Source: Saccharopolyspora shandongensis (GTDB lineage: Bacteria > Actinomycetota > Actinomycetes > Mycobacteriales > Pseudonocardiaceae). From it: a stretch of DNA of 64,000 nucleotides. Below are positions 52,334 through 58,583 of this stretch, piece by piece; positions within the stretch are counted from its first letter, which is position 1; every line of letters starts with the position of its first letter. The position numbers were made by a program, and so were the translations under genes. Below the pieces are notes generated by a model. That model was not told the DNA's origin and made no database searches. It saw nothing but the letters and a program-made list of their open reading frames with translations. The stretch is taken from the NCBI RefSeq assembly GCF_900106995.1, contig NZ_FNOK01000036.1:1-64000 (forward strand). Reading direction: 5' to 3'.

Positions 52334-53200
52334 TCAACCGCGATCGGCCGAGCGGGCGTGGTGCTCGGCGATCTCGTCGCTGGTGGTCAGCCACACGCCC
52401 TCGTGACCGGTGATGTACTCCAGCGCCTGGTCCAGGTACTTGGCCCGGAACGGCTGACCGATGACGAACGGGTGCAGCGCCAGCGACATCACCCGCCCGC
52501 TGTCCGCCGATTCGGCGTAGAGCTGGTCGAACTGGTCCTTGACCGCCTGCAGGAAGTCAGGGCCGCTCACCCCGGTGCCCACGAACATCGTCACGTCGTT
52601 GAGCTCGGTCTGGTACGGCACGCTGAGCAGGCCGGGCACGTTCAGCCGGTACGGCTGGTCGTCGTTGCTCCAGTCCAGCACGTAGCGCAGGCCGAGCTCC
52701 GCGAGGAGCGCTGGCGTGTGGAACGTTTCGGTCAGTCCCGGCCCCATCCACCCGCGCGGGCGGGTGCCGGTCGCGGCCTCGATGGTGTCCACCACGTCCC
52801 GCAGGTAGGCGCGCTCCTCGTCGACCGGCATGCCCGCCTGCAGGATCGAGTTGTTCTTGCCGTGCGCCAACCAGGCCCAGTCGCGCTGCTTGCCCGCGTC
52901 GATGATCTGCGGGTTGTGCTCGGTGACGTCGGAGTTCAGCAGCACGCTGGGGCGGATGCCGTGCCGGTCGAAGATGTCCACCAGCCGCCAGATGCCGACC
53001 CGCGGGCCGTAGTCCCGCCAGCCGTAGTTCAGCGGGTCGGGCGCCAGGTCCCTGGTCCCGGCGAAGATGCTGGTGGACGGCCGGTCGATCTCGTAGTGCT
53101 CGACGTTGAGGCCCACGTAGAACGCCAGCCGGGCGCCGCCCGGCCACCGCACCGGGGCGCGGTCGACGATCGGGCTGTAGTCGAAGAGCTGGTTGTGCAC
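52334..53200 (-). CDS. Polysaccharide deacetylase-family protein, PuuE-like
   Basis: A 288-aa NodB-homology protein of the allantoinase/PuuE-like branch. It has NVEHYEID near residues 32-39, VGIWRLVDIFDRHGIRPSVL near 68-87 and the C-terminal LALHPFVIGQPFRAKYLDQA near 250-269 that is typical of this branch. It likely deacetylates a sugar or hydrolyses a cyclic amide using a metal, in the cytoplasm. The start is GTG 53200 with GGAGG upstream; a longer frame to 53359 lacks a signal. Confidence 0.83.
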   Translation of the reverse strand: MHNQLFDYSPIVDRAPVRWPGGARLAFYVGLNVEHYEIDRPSTSIFAGTRDLAPDPLNYGWRDYGPRVGIWRLVDIFDRHGIRPSVLLNSDVTEHNPQIIDAGKQRDWAWLAHGKNNSILQAGMPVDEERAYLRDVVDTIEAATGTRPRGWMGPGLTETFHTPALLAELGLRYVLDWSNDDQPYRLNVPGLLSVPYQTELNDVTMFVGTGVSGPDFLQAVKDQFDQLYAESADSGRVMSLALHPFVIGQPFRAKYLDQALEYITGHEGVWLTTSDEIAEHHARSADRG

Positions 53201-53390
53201 TGCCGCCTCCTGGTCGGGCTGCCCGCGGCGGGTTTTCCCTGCTATCGCGGTGTTTTCCGGGTGTTGCGGCAATGCTCCAACCATCACACCAGTGTGAAGG
53301 TCAAACCGGCCCGCTGTGCCGTCGGACACAGTCCTTCTGCCCGCTCGTCGCGACTTCACCTGATCATCCGTTCGACGTTCCAGTTCGGTG

Positions 53391-53409
53391 CGCGAGAATG
53401 CTTCTCGCG
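53391..53409 (+). promoter_or_regulatory. Hairpin abutting the start codon of the next gene
   Basis: CGCGAGAA-TGC-TTCTCGCG is a perfect 8-bp stem with 3-nt loop that ends one base before ATG 53410. It would mask the place where a ribosome-binding site is expected, and no clear Shine-Dalgarno is seen nearby. The alternative ATG 53398 lies inside it. Confidence 0.45.
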
Positions 53410-54264
53410 ATGGCTGAAAACACCGAGCTCGAATTGCTGATCATCGTCGTCGTCGCGGCCGATGACGAGACCGCTGCGCGCGCCGCCTGCCGCGACCTGG
53501 TGCGGCGGATCGACGGCCGGATCGTGGCGTCCGGGGACTGCTCCGACGAGGAACCCGGCTGCTGGTCGGTCACGATCAGCCGGGCCAGCGCGGAGACCGG
53601 GCAGCACGTGGCCGGGTTGTCCCGCGCGGTGCGCAACTTCCTGCGCGAGCTCGGGCCCGACTACGCCAGGCACCGGGTGTCCTGCGAGCCGCCGACGGCG
53701 TGGACGGTGGTGGAGCACCCGGATCTGGTGGGCGATCTGGTCGCCGGCGGCGAGCGGCTGCTGGTCGAGGCGTGGTCCGGCGGGTCGATCCTGTTCGGCA
53801 GGCCCGACCCTGGCGACCCGGACGAACCGCCGGCGGAGGCACCAGAAGGCGTCAGCGACCTGGACGAACGCGGCAACCCGCGCCCGCGCCTGCGGCTGCT
53901 CGTGGACGTGGTCACCGAGCGGCGGGCGGGCGCGGAGTGGCCGGCACGAGCGGTGGCCAGCCGCCTGTCGCACACGGCCATGATCAGCGAGTACACGGTG
54001 GATCCGCCGCTGGTCCGGGTCGCGATGGACCTCGGGCCGGCGCTCGGCGACCTGCCGGAGATCGTGCTCGGCGCGATTTCGACCCTCGGCGGCAACGGCT
54101 GGTCGCGGCTGCGCGTCGACGAGCACCGCGCCACCGCCCGGTGGTCGGCCGCACCGACGCCGCCGTCCGGCGTCGCGGCGATCGAGGTGTCCGCCGTCGA
54201 GGCCGAAGCGGACGAGGCGACAGCGGGCGGACCATCCACAGTGGGCACCACGGGCCACGACTGA
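53410..54264 (+). CDS. Hypothetical protein upstream of the FtsK locus
   Basis: A 284-aa protein without signal peptide. Two similar beta-alpha units appear: LELLIIVVVAADDETAARAACRDL near the N-terminus (split here as LELLIIVVVAADD and ETAARAACRDL) and LRLLVDVVTERRAGAEWPAR around residues 155-174. This suggests a duplicated ferredoxin-like or ACT-like fold. The tail is Ala/Glu-rich. I do not recognise the family. The start could be ATG 53398. It lies 400 bp upstream of the FtsK locus on the same strand, so it may or may not belong to it. Confidence 0.65.
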   Translation: MAENTELELLIIVVVAADDETAARAACRDLVRRIDGRIVASGDCSDEEPGCWSVTISRASAETGQHVAGLSRAVRNFLRELGPDYARHRVSCEPPTAWTVVEHPDLVGDLVAGGERLLVEAWSGGSILFGRPDPGDPDEPPAEAPEGVSDLDERGNPRPRLRLLVDVVTERRAGAEWPARAVASRLSHTAMISEYTVDPPLVRVAMDLGPALGDLPEIVLGAISTLGGNGWSRLRVDEHRATARWSAAPTPPSGVAAIEVSAVEAEADEATAGGPSTVGTTGHD

Positions 54265-54667: not shown

Positions 54668-54928
54668 ATGGCGGGCGTCGAAGAAGTTCGCGCGGGAATT
54701 GCCTTGGCAAACCAGAAGATGCAGGAGAGCATCGCCGCCCTGCAACAGGGCAACCTCGCGCTCGAAGAGGCGCAGTCGGCCCTTGTCACCGCCACCCAGG
54801 GCAGCTCCCAGGAGGAGATGCAGCACGCGCACGGCTCGCTCGCCGAGGTGATGCAGGTGATCAGCGGGGTGCAGGCGCAGATCAGCGCGACGATCAACGC
54901 CACCGAGGGCTACGCGGGCCGCCTCTAG
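54668..54928 (+). CDS. Small helical protein 1 of the FtsK locus
   Basis: An 86-aa protein predicted to be a pair of long amphipathic helices: residues 3-45 are rich in Ala/Gln/Glu/Leu with heptad spacing, a Gly-Ser turn lies near 45-48, and a second helix follows to residue 80. It resembles WXG100-sized proteins in length and layout but lacks a W-x-G at the turn and the C-terminal YxxxD/E secretion motif. It is followed after 55 bp by a second small helical protein and then by the FtsK-type ATPase, so it may be a substrate or adaptor of that ATPase. Confidence 0.75.
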   Translation: MAGVEEVRAGIALANQKMQESIAALQQGNLALEEAQSALVTATQGSSQEEMQHAHGSLAEVMQVISGVQAQISATINATEGYAGRL

Positions 54929-54983
54929 GTCCCGGCAACGGCGGAAAGTCCAACCCGACCTCGTAGACAGGCTCTGTGGCACC

Positions 54984-55235
54984 GTGTCGACACTCGACGA
55001 ACTGATGCAGACGTTGCGCCTCGTGGAGGAACACCTGGCGGACGCGGGCGCCCACCTCGGCACCAGCCGGACCGCGCTCGCCGAGGCGGAGCAGGCGCTG
55101 GCGAAGCTCGACCCGGAACACCCGGAGACGGTGGTGCCGCCGAGCCTGCACCGCGCCGATGACCAGATCGAGCGATCCCTGGGGATGATCGAACACGTCC
55201 TCAACACGGTGCGCGACTTCGCCACCCGGTTGTAG
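54984..55235 (+). CDS. Small helical protein 2 of the FtsK locus
   Basis: An 83-aa protein with a helical N-terminal half (LDELMQTLRLVEEHLADAG, then TSRTALAEAEQALAKL), a proline-containing turn HPETVVPPSLH near residues 46-56 and a C-terminal helix. The helix-turn-helix hairpin shape is like that of protein 1, and together they may form a heterodimer. There is no WXG motif. It starts at GTG 54984 with a weak ribosome-binding site and ends 137 bp before the ATPase gene. Confidence 0.75.
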   Translation: MSTLDELMQTLRLVEEHLADAGAHLGTSRTALAEAEQALAKLDPEHPETVVPPSLHRADDQIERSLGMIEHVLNTVRDFATRL

Positions 55236-55372
55236 GACGCGGCGGCGTTCTCGGCTTTCGGCGCTCAACCGAGCCACATTCGCCCTCGTGCATGGGCACA
55301 CCAGGGGCCTGCCCGACTCCTCGTCGAGTGGTATTTTGATCACGGTCTGTAACACGGGTTCCGAGGTGGGAC

Positions 55373-58198
55373 GTGGGTAAACGCAACGAGCGGCGGAGTC
55401 GGATCGAAGCGGCCTTCGAGCGCCTGCGAACCAGCATCGCCTCCGCGCTCGGCGCCGCCGAGCAGGAACACGACCGCGTCCTCGCCGAATGCTCGCAGCA
55501 GGAGTTCGCGCTGCGCATCGCCCAGGTCGGGGTGGCCGCGGCGGAACGCGAACCGGCGGAGATCGCCGATCCCGAGAACCCGGTCTTCAAGGCCGCGATG
55601 CGGGAGGCGCTGCGCGAGCGGGCGGAGATCTACGCCGAGTGGACCGAGCAGGGCCCGGAGGAGCTCGGCGGGCTCGTCGCGGATGCCGCTCCCGGCGCAG
55701 CTGGGCTCCCGTGGCCGGCGTGGCTCGGCGAGGTCGGCACCCAGGACGCCGTCGCGCCGCCGCCGGAGCTGTGGCGGATCGGCACCGCGACCGTCCCGGA
55801 TTCGCCCGACCCGCAACCGTTCCCGGTCGCCATCCCGCTGCTGGACGAGTCGCACCTGCGGATCGTCACCGAGGACAACCCGGAATCCGCCGAAGCGCTG
55901 GTGCAGAACCTGCTGTTGCGGCTGCTCAGCCAGTTCCAGCCCGGCCTGGTGCGCATCCACGTCTGGGACGTCGCGCAGGTGACCGGCACGCTGCCGGGGC
56001 TCTACCCGCTGACCCGCGCGGGCCTGCTGACGGCGCACGATCCGACCCGGCTCGACGAGATGCTCGAAGCGCTCTCCGACCACATCCGGCGGATCCACAC
56101 CGATTCGCTGGTGGGTGGGCACACGTCGCTGCGCTCGCTGGCCGCGGAAAGCGGGCACCGCTCGGAGCCCTGGCGGGTCGCGGTGCTGTTCGGCGATGGC
56201 AAGGCGCTGCGCGAGGAGCAGCAGCAACAGTTGCAGCGGATCGCGCGCAACGGCCTGGCCTGCGGCATCCAGCTGATCGTCGTGGACCTCTCGCTGACCG
56301 TGAACAGCGCGATCGAGTCCATCAAGCTGCTCGGCGGCGACCGGGCGCGCACCAGCATGACCGGGCCGGAAGCCGTTGTGCAGCTGGACGAATCGCCGTC
56401 GAGCAACGAGGTGACCAAGGCGTGCTCGGCGATCGCGGAGGCGTTCCTCGCCCGGCGGGCGCGGGTGCGGACCTTCGACGACCTGGTGCCGGAGCAGCTG
56501 TGGACGCAGCGCTCGACGGCCGGGCTGCACGCGCCGGTCGGGTTCAACGAGGGCGAGCCGGTGTGGATCACCCTCGGCGACGGCAGCCCGCACACCCTGA
56601 TCGGCGGCCCCAGCGGGTCGGGCAAGACGAACTTCCTCTACGGCATGCTCGGCGGGCTCGCGGCCCGCTACTCGCCGGACGAGCTGGAGCTCTACCTGCT
56701 GGACTTCAAGGAAGGCGTGTCGTTCGCCCAGTTCACCCCGGGCCGCCGCGACCGGAGCTGGCTGCCGAACGCGCAGCTGGTCGGGGTGAACGTCAACACC
56801 GACCGCGAGTTCGGGCTGGCGCTGCTGCGGTTCCTGGCCGACGAGATGCGGCGGCGCGCGGAGTCCGCCAAGGAACACGAGGTCACCAAGCTGGAGGAGC
56901 TGCGCGACGCGGACCCGAACGGCCGGTGGCCGCGGATCGTCGCCGTGATCGACGAGTTCCAGTACCTCTTCGCCGAGCGCGACCCGGTCACGGCGCAGGC
57001 CGCCGCGCTGCTGGAGGACGTCGCGCGGCGCGGCCGCTCGCAGGGCATCCACCTGGTGCTGGCCAGCCAGGACGTGTCCGGGATCGAGGCGTTCTGGGGC
57101 AAGCCGGCGATCTTCGAGCAGTTCATCCTGCGGATCGCGCTGCCCAAGGCGCGGCGGGTGCTGGCCGAGCAGAACAACGCCGCGCTGGAGCTGCCGCGCT
57201 GGCACGCGGTCGTCAACCACGAGTCGGGCGTCAAGCACGGCAACAAGATCGCGCGCATCCCGGACGCCACCGCGAAGAACACCTTCGACGCGCTGCAGCA
57301 AGAGCTGTGGAATCAGCGCGACAAGAACGCCCCGCCGCCGCGGTTGTTCGACGGCTCGAACCTGCCAGAGCTGTCCACGCTGGAGGATTACGCGAAGCTG
57401 CGGGCACCGGTGCCGGTGCCGAAGGTCCTGCTCGGGCAGATCATCGACGTCAACGGCACGGCCGCCGCGGTCCGGCTCGTGCGCTCGCCGGGACGCAACA
57501 TCGCGGTGATCGGATCGGTGCTGGCAGACGCGATCAGCGTGCTCGGCACGGCGACGCTTTCCCTCGCGCGCCAATACGTTCCGGGCAGCATCAAGTTCAC
57601 CATCGCGGCCCTGCTCGACGACATCGACGACGACGCCCGCGGCGTCGCCGAGGCGCTGCGCACCGACGGCCACGACGTCGAGCTGGTCGGCCTGGACGGC
57701 ATCGAGGCCGCGCTGGCCGGCACCGCCGAGACGATCGACCAGCGGTCTGGCGCCGACGTGCCGCACGTCCTGGTGCTCTACGCCGCCGACGCGGCGCACA
57801 CCACGCTGGAGCGCAAGGACCCGACCACCCGCGTCAGCGGGCTGGACCACCTCCGGAAGATCCTCAAGCAGGGCCCGGAACTGCGGGTGCACGTGATCGG
57901 CTGGTGGCGCAGCGCGCAGCGCGTGAAGAACACCCTCGGCATGGGCCCGGTCGACGATATCGGCGCCTGGGTCGCCTTCGACGTGCACGGCCAGGAGCTG
58001 GCGGCGTTCGCGGCCGGGCAGGTGGTCAACTGGTCGCCGCGGGCGCGGCGCGGCCTGTTCTTCGACCGCGCGGTGCACTCCCGGCCCGAGGTGATCCTGC
58101 CCTTCGACCTCGGCGACCAGGCGAAGCCGGTGCCGGCGGTCCTGGCGCCGCAAGCAGCGGACGAGCGGTGCGAGATCCGGGAGGAAGCCGGTGACTGA
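55373..58198 (+). CDS. Soluble FtsK/SpoIIIE-family ATPase
   Basis: A 941-aa protein without membrane segments. Residues 1-90 are a charged helical region. A first FtsK-like domain (about 120-340) lacks the P-loop. The central domain has Walker A GGPSGSGKTN at about 411-420 and Walker B RIVAVIDEFQYLF at 521-533, with LLASQDVSG-type sensor LVLASQDVSGIEAFWGKPA. A third, degenerate domain (about 680-900) has GRNIAVIGSVLADA without a Lys. This three-domain layout recalls EccC of type VII secretion, but without its TM region. GTG 55373 follows GAGGTGG. It is likely a hexameric pump or remodelling motor acting on DNA or on the two small helical proteins. Confidence 0.85.
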   Translation: MGKRNERRSRIEAAFERLRTSIASALGAAEQEHDRVLAECSQQEFALRIAQVGVAAAEREPAEIADPENPVFKAAMREALRERAEIYAEWTEQGPEELGGLVADAAPGAAGLPWPAWLGEVGTQDAVAPPPELWRIGTATVPDSPDPQPFPVAIPLLDESHLRIVTEDNPESAEALVQNLLLRLLSQFQPGLVRIHVWDVAQVTGTLPGLYPLTRAGLLTAHDPTRLDEMLEALSDHIRRIHTDSLVGGHTSLRSLAAESGHRSEPWRVAVLFGDGKALREEQQQQLQRIARNGLACGIQLIVVDLSLTVNSAIESIKLLGGDRARTSMTGPEAVVQLDESPSSNEVTKACSAIAEAFLARRARVRTFDDLVPEQLWTQRSTAGLHAPVGFNEGEPVWITLGDGSPHTLIGGPSGSGKTNFLYGMLGGLAARYSPDELELYLLDFKEGVSFAQFTPGRRDRSWLPNAQLVGVNVNTDREFGLALLRFLADEMRRRAESAKEHEVTKLEELRDADPNGRWPRIVAVIDEFQYLFAERDPVTAQAAALLEDVARRGRSQGIHLVLASQDVSGIEAFWGKPAIFEQFILRIALPKARRVLAEQNNAALELPRWHAVVNHESGVKHGNKIARIPDATAKNTFDALQQELWNQRDKNAPPPRLFDGSNLPELSTLEDYAKLRAPVPVPKVLLGQIIDVNGTAAAVRLVRSPGRNIAVIGSVLADAISVLGTATLSLARQYVPGSIKFTIAALLDDIDDDARGVAEALRTDGHDVELVGLDGIEAALAGTAETIDQRSGADVPHVLVLYAADAAHTTLERKDPTTRVSGLDHLRKILKQGPELRVHVIGWWRSAQRVKNTLGMGPVDDIGAWVAFDVHGQELAAFAAGQVVNWSPRARRGLFFDRAVHSRPEVILPFDLGDQAKPVPAVLAPQAADERCEIREEAGD

Positions 58199-58583
58199 GC
58201 AGATTCCGGCCGCGGAGCGGTACAAGGAGATCACCGCGCGGGCCACCACCGCCGCGCAGCAGCTGCGCAAGCACGAGCGCGAGCGAGCCGGCGAGCTCGG
58301 CGAGGCGGTCGCCGCTGGGAAGCAGCGCCGGGAGGCCGCCGACGAACAGCGCGAGAAGGTGCTCGACGACGTGCGCAAGCGGTGGAACGCCGCGATGGAA
58401 GCGCTGTGGAACGAGCGGTGGATGCAGGTCAAGGGCATGCCCGACCCGGACCGCAAGGCCGCACCGTCCACACCGGACGATTCCCGTCGCGATGTCCAGC
58501 AGGCATACAGGGCGCTCTACGACGCGCTCGAGAAGCCCCGCTTCGCCGCGAGTCTCCGCCCCCGCCGCAAGAAGGATTCCTAG
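58191..58583 (+). CDS. Coiled-coil partner of the FtsK-type ATPase
   Basis: A 130-aa, highly charged, almost entirely helical protein (Glu/Arg/Lys/Ala-rich; heptads in residues 5-65). A tryptophan-rich stretch RWNAAMEALWNERWMQVKG occurs near 64-82 and a basic tail at the end. GTG 58191 starts 8 bp inside the ATPase gene, so its translation is coupled. It is probably an assembly or adaptor subunit. Its stop codon shares the CTAG tetranucleotide with the stop of the convergent tetR gene. Confidence 0.8.
   Translation: MTEQIPAAERYKEITARATTAAQQLRKHERERAGELGEAVAAGKQRREAADEQREKVLDDVRKRWNAAMEALWNERWMQVKGMPDPDRKAAPSTPDDSRRDVQQAYRALYDALEKPRFAASLRPRRKKDS

What the first reader, a model, noticed from the sequence alone, without database searches (positions are those of the whole stretch)
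54668..58583. FtsK/SpoIIIE ATPase locus with two small helical-hairpin proteins and a coupled coiled-coil partner
A soluble 941-aa ATPase with one intact and two degenerate FtsK-like domains is preceded by two 83-86-aa helical-hairpin proteins and followed by an overlapping 130-aa coiled-coil protein. The layout echoes EccC with EsxA/EsxB-like partners. However, there is no WXG motif, no YxxxD/E signal, no TM in the ATPase and no EccB, EccD, EccE or mycosin gene nearby. It could be a cytosolic pump or remodelling motor for small helical partners, a conflict or plasmid-transfer-related system, or a reduced type VII relative.
Basis: partly seen in the sequence, partly recalled or inferred. Interest (0 to 1): 0.75.

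Follow-up and report, generated by a model that had tools for sequence, protein, structure and literature searches.

The report
Toxin-linked secretion-type motor gene cassette
Four neighbouring genes encode an ATP-driven protein motor without a membrane anchor and small helical partners whose fold-back shape is reused as the front end of many antibacterial-type toxins, so the genes probably load or export such toxins.

Summary
A 941-aa FtsK/EccC-type ATPase (P0003) with one intact and two degenerate motor domains and no membrane anchor sits in a four-gene cassette with two paralogous 83-86-aa helical hairpins and a coiled-coil protein. P0003 occurs in 119 of 150 sampled genomes of its family; of 62 named loci, 62 keep a coiled-coil match and 56 keep both hairpins. 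The ATPase anatomy is already described for TM-less 'WXG100/FtsK' systems (PMC11090510, PMC3482391), so the class is known. New here: the hairpin domain also heads many polymorphic toxins, mostly DddA-like DNA deaminases (31 of 57 and 17 of 19 scanned), usually followed by Imm1-type immunity genes (45 of 64). Hairpins outside the cassette occur in 16 of 31 ATPase-positive but 1 of 31 ATPase-negative genomes. Related hairpins also lie near FtsK-type motors of likely conjugative elements (7 of 7 regions examined). Best reading: a type-VII-like loading or export motor for hairpin-tagged toxins. Export and the membrane channel are not shown; WXG100 membership was tested and not supported.

The parts
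54668..54928 (+). P0001, 86-aa helical hairpin (helices 2-42 and 48-85), turn T-Q-G-S, C-terminal RL
   Evidence: C-terminal Leu nearly invariant in A1 and invariant in A5
54984..55235 (+). P0002, 83-aa helical-hairpin paralogue of P0001
   Evidence: (profiles started from P0001 and from P0002 end on the same 99 sequences in 61 of 62 loci; recount)
55373..58198 (+). P0003, 941-aa soluble FtsK/EccC-type ATPase
55376..55705 (+). P0003 N-terminal helical part (about residues 2-111), where EccC has its TM and stalk (the comparison is recalled architecture)
   Evidence: secondary structure
55670..56452 (+). P0003 domain 1 (about residues 100-360), degenerate, like the EccC5 DUF domain
56456..57448 (+). 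P0003 domain 2 (about residues 362-692), the intact motor
56606..56629 (+). Walker A GPSGSGKT (residues 412-419), invariant
   Evidence: 26 of 26
56951..56956 (+). Walker B DE (residues 527-528), invariant
57341..58114 (+). P0003 domain 3 (about residues 657-914), degenerate, like EccC/EssC D3
58191..58583 (+). P0004, 130-aa charged, probably coiled-coil partner; gene overlaps the ATPase gene by 8 bases
   Evidence: no TM. Slot counterparts in distant relatives have C-terminal TM-like stretches (by eye)

Best explanation
The cassette encodes a membrane-anchorless, type-VII-like motor that recognises a specific helical-hairpin domain. P0001 and P0002 most likely form an EsxA/EsxB-like hairpin pair. 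P0003 hexamerises through its single active FtsK motor (domain 2) and uses degenerate domain 3 to read hairpin C-termini. P0004 (coiled coil) couples P0003 to a docking site, perhaps at the membrane. The clients are proteins with the same hairpin at their N-terminus: polymorphic toxins, mostly DddA-like DNA deaminases with Imm1 immunity, sometimes with a stand-alone hairpin partner encoded just upstream. The motor would bind, unfold or load these toxins for export against competing bacteria. SHOWN here: gene conservation, one intact motor, EccC-like domain order, homology of the hairpins to toxin N-domains, toxin-immunity gene order, co-occurrence with the ATPase. INFERRED: hairpin dimerisation, recognition by domain 3, hexamer, export, direction of transport. 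UNKNOWN: the membrane channel.
For: Cassette conserved: P0003 in 119/150 family genomes; 62/62 named loci with a P0004-profile match, 56/62 with two hairpins (one miss, L082, is cut by a contig end). EccC-like fold. Distant relatives: a hairpin match near the ATPase in 11 of 17 regions from other families, a twelfth (L130's place, held as L102). Toxin link: profile A3, built only from hairpins outside the cassette, finds P0001 (8.5e-17) and P0002 (6.1e-7) as its only hits among 345 window ORFs and none among shuffles; hhalign A1 vs A3 99.2%, E 1e-19, reversed control 9.4%. Payloads: DddA-like 31/57 and 17/19, EndoU 2/57, CdiA_C 1/57. Immunity: 69 of 73 toxin-like ORFs have a downstream ORF within 250 bases, 62 of them between -12 and +9; Imm1 in 45 of 64 scanned. 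Stand-alone hairpin directly upstream of a toxin in 11 cases. Co-occurrence 16/31 vs 1/31 genomes, Fisher p 2.6e-5; 14/26 vs 1/12 genera, p 0.012. A published parallel predicts that TM-less EssC homologues with WXG100 pairs act in secretion (PMC11090510, passages).
Against: No TM protein or channel in the cassette; P0004 lacks TM. The toxins are mostly not near the cassette: in the flanks (up to 10 kb a side) of 62 named loci one hairpin-headed 278-aa ORF away from the cassette was found (L074). One ATPase-negative genome (G074) has a genuine hairpin toxin plus partner (L279), so the ATPase is not strictly required; its partner has a true W-x-G, so a canonical type VII system could serve it. 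15 of 31 ATPase-positive genomes show no hairpin outside the cassette. A3 was built from hairpins of ATPase-positive genomes only, which favours finding them there; P values ignore phylogeny beyond genus. In a phylum sample hairpin matches outside the family were few and mostly weak (22 of 296 genomes at E <= 1e-3, best outside the window's genome 2.1e-11 then 3.7e-5; not read). The genome has 10 EccB loci that could supply export. No experiment.
Confidence: 0.55

Rival explanations
1. The hairpin toxins are exported by one of the cell's canonical T7SS machines; P0003-P0004 with P0001/P0002 is only a cytosolic chaperone or holdase/unfoldase that prepares them.
For: 10 EccB loci and many EccC-type domains in the same genome; no channel in the cassette; a few hairpins carry W-x-G (4 of 49 in A3; by eye also L279 and L296).
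Against: Four of the 31 ATPase-negative genomes show EccC-sized ATPases, and only one of the 31 has a real hairpin toxin. EccB was searched only in the window's genome, so full ESX systems in the negatives are not shown.
Confidence: 0.2
2. Intracellular conflict hub: the hairpin is an effector-associated adaptor, and P0003 is an NTP-dependent hub that assembles or releases toxic effectors inside the cell (for example on phage or plasmid entry).
For: Related operons carry Hsp70/DnaK-like, TPR and GrpE genes (L140 by eye; Rhodococcus plasmid L334) or VWA, PP2C, kinase and CARF genes (Caballeronia plasmid L335). Hsp70 with GrpE is reported in actinobacterial NTP-dependent conflict systems (PMC7159879, passages), and related ATPases occur in CoCoNuT defence loci (PMC11090510).
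Against: Cognate immunity genes directly follow most toxins, a hallmark of toxins used between cells (recalled); the payloads are polymorphic-toxin domains.
Confidence: 0.15
3. Conjugation accessory: the hairpins mark proteins for FtsK-type DNA/protein pumps of mobile elements, and the chromosomal cassette is a domesticated or anti-conjugation version.
For: Hairpin genes lie 1.7-3.1 kb from a TraB-like FtsK gene in 7 of 7 regions examined, in five of them as the C-terminus of a larger frame.
Against: No transfer genes among the scanned neighbours of the cassette, its place is syntenic in many genomes, and P0003 does not group with the two TraB-like sequences in the tree (long branches).
Confidence: 0.08

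Closest known systems
TM-less EssC homologue with two WXG100-type proteins in Type III-A CoCoNuT loci, said to occur stand-alone elsewhere (PMC11090510, passages read, which credit Anantharaman et al. 2012, not read)
   Same: Three ATPase domains with only the central one active, N-terminal coiled coil instead of TM, paired small helical proteins one of which lacks WxG, a coiled-coil protein nearby
   Different: Here no VWA, kinase, McrBC or nuclease gene among the scanned neighbours; near-core chromosomal in the family; both hairpins lack W; hairpins shared with polymorphic toxins
[quoted passage not shown]
   Same: ATPase anatomy
   Different: [quoted passage not shown] here actinobacterial, at a mostly syntenic place, with a duplicated non-WXG hairpin
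H. pylori 'WXG100 secretion system' gene cluster (DnaK homologue, WxG100 family, FtsK/SpoIIIE, HNH/EndoVII nuclease) (PMC4978471, passages)
   Same: FtsK-type ATPase plus small helical protein plus toxin-like nuclease; core genome
   Different: WXG100-type partner and DnaK homologue; not compared by sequence here
T7SSa EccC / T7SSb EssC and T7SSc-j (PMC11217815: abstract, passages and section 7)
   Same: Motor fold, small helical partners, toxins with helical targeting domains and small partner proteins
   Different: Those ATPases are membrane-bound with four C-terminal NTPase domains
LXG toxins with Lap partners
   Same: Helical N-domain, variable toxin C-domain, immunity gene, small helical partner upstream (11 cases here)
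   Different: Hairpin domain about 85 aa; no LXG family among the Pfam matches of the 57 and 19 members at E <= 1e-3

Membership tests
T7SSa (ESX) secretion system | membrane-anchored EccC with TM helices | tested here: not met
   P0003 starts with a soluble helix; its only hydrophobic stretch lies in the domain-3 core
T7SSa (ESX) secretion system | EccB at the locus | tested here: not met
   10 EccB loci in the genome, none on the window's contig C47
T7SSa (ESX) secretion system | EccD, EccE and mycosin at the locus | not tested
   no dedicated search; ten proteins of the region scanned with Pfam show none
T7SSa (ESX) secretion system | YxxxD/E secretion signal in the pair | tested here: not met
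   sequences
EccCa/EccCb (TIGR03924/TIGR03925) | score above the NCBIfam cut-off | tested here: not met
   94.5 vs 509.15 and 52.3 vs 346.55 bits
WXG100 (PF06013) | Pfam match of P0001/P0002 | tested here: not met
   no PF06013 match at E up to 1
WXG100 (PF06013) | profile-profile homology above a control | tested here: not met
   hhalign to 21 own-genome WXG100 rows: A1 1.1%, A3 23.8%; reversed controls higher, 35.4% and 65.0%
WXG100 (PF06013) | helical-hairpin fold like EsxA | tested here: inconclusive
   hairpin predicted; Foldseek lists EsxA at rank 2 but E 0.37, among unrelated coiled coils, none at E <= 0.001
TM-less WXG100/FtsK stand-alone system (PMC11090510, PMC3482391) | three FtsK-type domains, only the central one active | tested here: met
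TM-less WXG100/FtsK stand-alone system (PMC11090510, PMC3482391) | N-terminal coiled coil, no TM | tested here: met
   long N-terminal helices in the model, no TM; coiled coil as such not scored
TM-less WXG100/FtsK stand-alone system (PMC11090510, PMC3482391) | at least one WXG100-type partner | tested here: inconclusive
   hairpin pair present; WXG100 kinship not supported by sequence
Polymorphic toxin (hairpin clients) | constant N-domain, variable toxin C-domains, adjacent immunity gene | tested here: met
TraB-type conjugation motor | groups with TraB-like motors in a tree | tested here: inconclusive
   P0003 clade 100/100 apart from two TraB-like and the EccC clades; backbone unresolved and TraB-like branches long

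The most novel reading that the evidence does not exclude
Pseudonocardiaceae carry, as a near-core chromosomal system, a dedicated export motor without a membrane-anchored ATPase that is distinct from their ESX systems. It reads a private, non-WXG100 hairpin signal and delivers an arsenal of DNA-deaminase and RNase toxins; conjugative elements share the same signal on their own proteins, next to their own FtsK-type pumps.
Probability: 0.3. Interest if true: 0.85.

Novelty: new variant of a known kind. Interest (0 to 1): 0.7.

Why it matters
TM-less EssC-type ATPases were predicted to act in secretion from their WXG100 neighbours (PMC11090510). Here a shared hairpin domain links such a motor to a large set of candidate clients, mostly DddA-like double-stranded DNA deaminases with Imm1 immunity, which makes the prediction directly testable in soil actinomycetes. 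If the system exports toxins, it is another way in which type-VII-like motors serve bacterial antagonism. It may also explain how many actinobacterial SCP1.201/DddA-type deaminases, a family used for base editing (search listing), are recognised by their producers.

Tried and rejected
WXG100 homology of the hairpins: attractive because the turn G is conserved and 4 of 49 A3 domains have W two residues before it, but reversed alignments scored higher than the real comparison; not claimed, kept as analogy.

Cassette as a passenger of its neighbours: an upstream gene cluster (P0005-like) is found in 44 of 62 loci and not in 18, some of them cut by contig ends; not counted as part of the system. 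Of the window's downstream genes, the TetR gene has no match in the 62 loci and the 60896 MFS gene matches in 4.

A named defence system: PADLOC hits are domain-level only (mad8, SspH). PHROGs gave FtsK-like domain matches for P0003 (best phrog_1358, 2.4e-29) and nothing below 0.036 for the three small proteins. Plasmid or phage origin: 4 plasmid records and 1 phage record match P0003, none over 80% of it. The toxin L231 has no plasmid match. DUF6244: 6 of 33 A1 members match PF19757, none in the window's genome, and no paper in the library holds the name.

Distant relatives: in the tree the P3-like motors of other families do not join the P0003 clade with support; the backbone is unresolved. 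Regions L141 and L143-L146 gave no hairpin match at E <= 0.005.

Rows dropped and choices: L232 (hairpin frame that runs into P450-like sequence, by eye), L233 (true WXG100-transglycosylase), L262 (proteasomal-ATPase coiled coil) and L280 (Mce-like by eye) are not counted as hairpin toxins; the first three are inside the 57, and L280 was left out of A7. Five of 69 downstream ORFs (L223, L275:5070-5297, L291:1660-2184, L292, L296; at least three look like split toxin ends) were left out of the 64. The 60 regions were picked by hand from the matches in 20 genomes chosen for many or interesting hits, so payload fractions describe a chosen sample. The 31 ATPase-positive genomes were taken by handle number, passing over the genomes and G005, G007, G011, G045. 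Four of the 16 positives with hairpins outside the cassette (G006, G019, G052, G057) were not read at sequence level. Stand-alone hairpins in L228, L238, L251, L252, L269 and L296 were not checked for nearby FtsK genes.
Full report
1. The observation. The host is a Saccharopolyspora close to S. elongata, whose genome holds a 96%-identical ATPase; that species belongs to Pseudonocardiaceae. The ATPase has one Pfam FtsK_SpoIIIE stretch (residues 372-568). Its best solved relative by sequence is T. curvata EccC 4nh0 (E 2.5e-24). It falls far below the EccCa cut-off (94.5 vs 509.15 bits).

3. The hairpins. AlphaFold2 gives helices 2-42 and 48-85 for P0001 (pLDDT 89.8). Iterated profiles from P0001 and from P0002 end on the same 99 sequences in 61 of 62 loci, so the two genes are paralogues. 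Their lengths hardly vary, and the C-terminal residue is Leu in at least 90% of A1 and all of A5. They are not shown to be WXG100 proteins: no Pfam match; hhalign against own-genome WXG100 proteins (loci) gives 1.1% and 23.8%, below reversed controls of 35.4% and 65.0%; Foldseek finds no hit at E <= 0.001.

4. The cassette is conserved. P0003 has a match at E <= 1e-60 in 119 of 150 sampled family genomes, 35 of 46 genera. In 62 named loci, all 62 have a P0004-profile match (several in overlong frames) and 56 have two hairpins; one miss is cut at a contig end. A P0005-like upstream gene is found in 44 of 62. The 31 genomes without P0003 lack it even at E <= 1e-15 except for four EccC-sized frames.

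5. Distant relatives. Of 20 fetched regions, 17 are from other families, two hold a second system of the family, and one, from the window's own genome, has no P0003 match. A hairpin match lies near the ATPase in 11 of the 17 and, in a twelfth (L130's place, held as L102, E 2.4e-7): for example L132-L135 and L138-L139, L136 beside rpsG/rpsL (by eye), L140 with two hairpins, a DnaK-like and a TPR-like protein (by eye). L141 and L143-L146 have none at E <= 0.005. The P0004 slot is taken there by proteins with C-terminal TM-like stretches (L130, L132, L136, by eye). A Rhodococcus plasmid shows Hsp70, TPR, GrpE, a 930-aa FtsK protein, a 203-aa protein with a terminal TM-like stretch, an 86-aa hairpin (A1 profile 6.7e-19) and a 272-aa protein without Pfam match. 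A Caballeronia plasmid has a gene annotated WXG100 and a 927-aa FtsK protein among VWA, CARF, PP2C and kinase genes. In a phylum sample the hairpin profile matches 22 of 296 genomes at E <= 1e-3, mostly weakly (not read).

6. The toxin link. The hairpin profile finds three more domains in the window's own genome outside the cassette. One (contig C55) is the N-terminus of a 254-258-aa protein with a bacterial EndoU domain (E 4.5e-12) followed by a 203-aa ORF. The other two (contig C40) lie beside an FtsK-type gene that I take for TraB of a conjugative element. In 20 family genomes, chosen for many or interesting matches, dozens of such domains appear. I fetched 60 regions and later 20 more (two of them from ATPase-negative genomes). 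In all, 105 hairpin matches in 82 loci: 28 of stand-alone length (some of them trimmed from longer frames) and 77 with extra sequence, 73 of which I keep as toxin-like. Pfam: DddA-like deaminase in 31 of 57, EndoU in 2, CdiA_C in 1, Imm1 in 2 (three of the 57 are not hairpin toxins), and DddA-like in 17 of 19 of the second batch. L242 is a hairpin fused to Imm1. Of the 73, 69 have a downstream ORF within 250 bases, 62 of them between -12 and +9 bases; Imm1 matches 45 of 64 scanned. Imm1 is the reported immunity protein of SCP1.201 deaminases (PMC3482391, passages), the subfamily of DddA (PMC7901873, passage). Stand-alone hairpins lie directly upstream of a toxin in 11 cases, and none of 73 has a 19-residue stretch above Kyte-Doolittle 1.8, so no Sec-type signal is apparent.

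7. Is the shared domain real? The profile built only from hairpins outside the cassette (A3) recovers P0001 (8.5e-17) and P0002 (6.1e-7) as its only hits among 345 window ORFs, with none in shuffles. hhalign A1 vs A3 is 99.2%, E 1e-19; reversed control 9.4%. The A3 members had been found with A1, so discovery was not independent, but the controls are.

8. Co-occurrence. With A3 at E <= 1e-4, hairpins outside the cassette occur in 16 of 31 ATPase-positive genomes (12 of the 16 read). In 31 ATPase-negative genomes two matched: one Mce-like by eye (L280) and one real pair (L279) whose partner has a true W-x-G. Fisher p 2.6e-5 (1.6e-4 counting both); genus level 14/26 vs 1/12, p 0.012. This is not corrected for phylogeny, and A3 comes from ATPase-positive genomes only. 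The identical 119-genome sets are expected from linkage and are not used as evidence.

9. Likely conjugative elements. In 7 of 7 regions examined with hairpins outside cassettes (L183, L328-L333), a gene similar to the FtsK-type gene of L183 lies 1.7-3.1 kb away; 'TraB-like' and 'conjugative' are my reading of that ATPase and its neighbours. In five the hairpin is the C-terminus of a larger frame; one shows HEAGH by eye, another a weak, sub-threshold M41 match (E 0.048).

10. What is known. The ATPase anatomy is in print: Zhang et al. 2012 (PMC3482391, passages) and Bell et al. 2024 (PMC11090510, passages), the latter with two WXG100-type proteins, one without WxG, and a prediction of secretion by another mechanism; H. 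pylori has a comparable 'WXG100 secretion system' cluster (PMC4978471, passages). T7SSc-j are membrane-bound, and the main text does not name Pseudonocardia (PMC11217815). The listings of my ten paper searches (one search failed on syntax) show no title or abstract start linking this hairpin to deaminase toxins; I read passages of six papers only, and most subscription papers, including Iyer et al. 2011 on deaminases (cited in PMC7901873, not read), are outside that library.

11. Verdict. The finding is real, and its class is partly known. The most likely role is loading or export of hairpin-tagged antibacterial toxins by a membrane-anchorless EccC-type motor (confidence 0.55). Export, channel and recognition are inferred.

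Noticed in passing
L184:9190-9954 (own genome contig C55): Hairpin-EndoU polymorphic toxin with a 203-aa downstream ORF in the window's own genome.
   Followed up: yes
L183 (own genome contig C40, 43000-62000): Likely conjugative element with an FtsK-type gene, a cytosine methylase gene, and two tandem hairpins, the first behind an HEAGH-containing (metallopeptidase-like) stretch.
   Followed up: partly
L242:2550-3266 and L250:2094-2795: Hairpin domain fused to an Imm1 immunity domain instead of a toxin (Pfam for L242; L250 by similarity).
   Followed up: no
L263-L265, L271-L276: A recurrent hairpin-headed C-terminal domain (seen by eye in most of these loci) without Pfam match in the one tested (L264), usually with its own 114-119-aa downstream ORF; possibly a new toxin family.
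   Followed up: no
L140 and L334: P3-type ATPase operons with Hsp70/DnaK-like and TPR genes (and GrpE in L334) plus hairpins.
   Followed up: partly
window 52334-53359 (-): Polysaccharide deacetylase/PuuE-like gene upstream of the cassette; among the loci held only S. elongata (L039) shares it.
   Followed up: no
window 53272-54264 (+): Conserved uncharacterised upstream gene (true start probably near 53410), cluster found in 44 of 62 loci, no Pfam family above cut-off.
   Followed up: partly
L147 and L149: A second, diverged P3-type system in genus g34 with a membrane/zinc-ribbon-like 499-aa protein (by eye) and a hairpin fused to an extra C-terminal part.
   Followed up: partly
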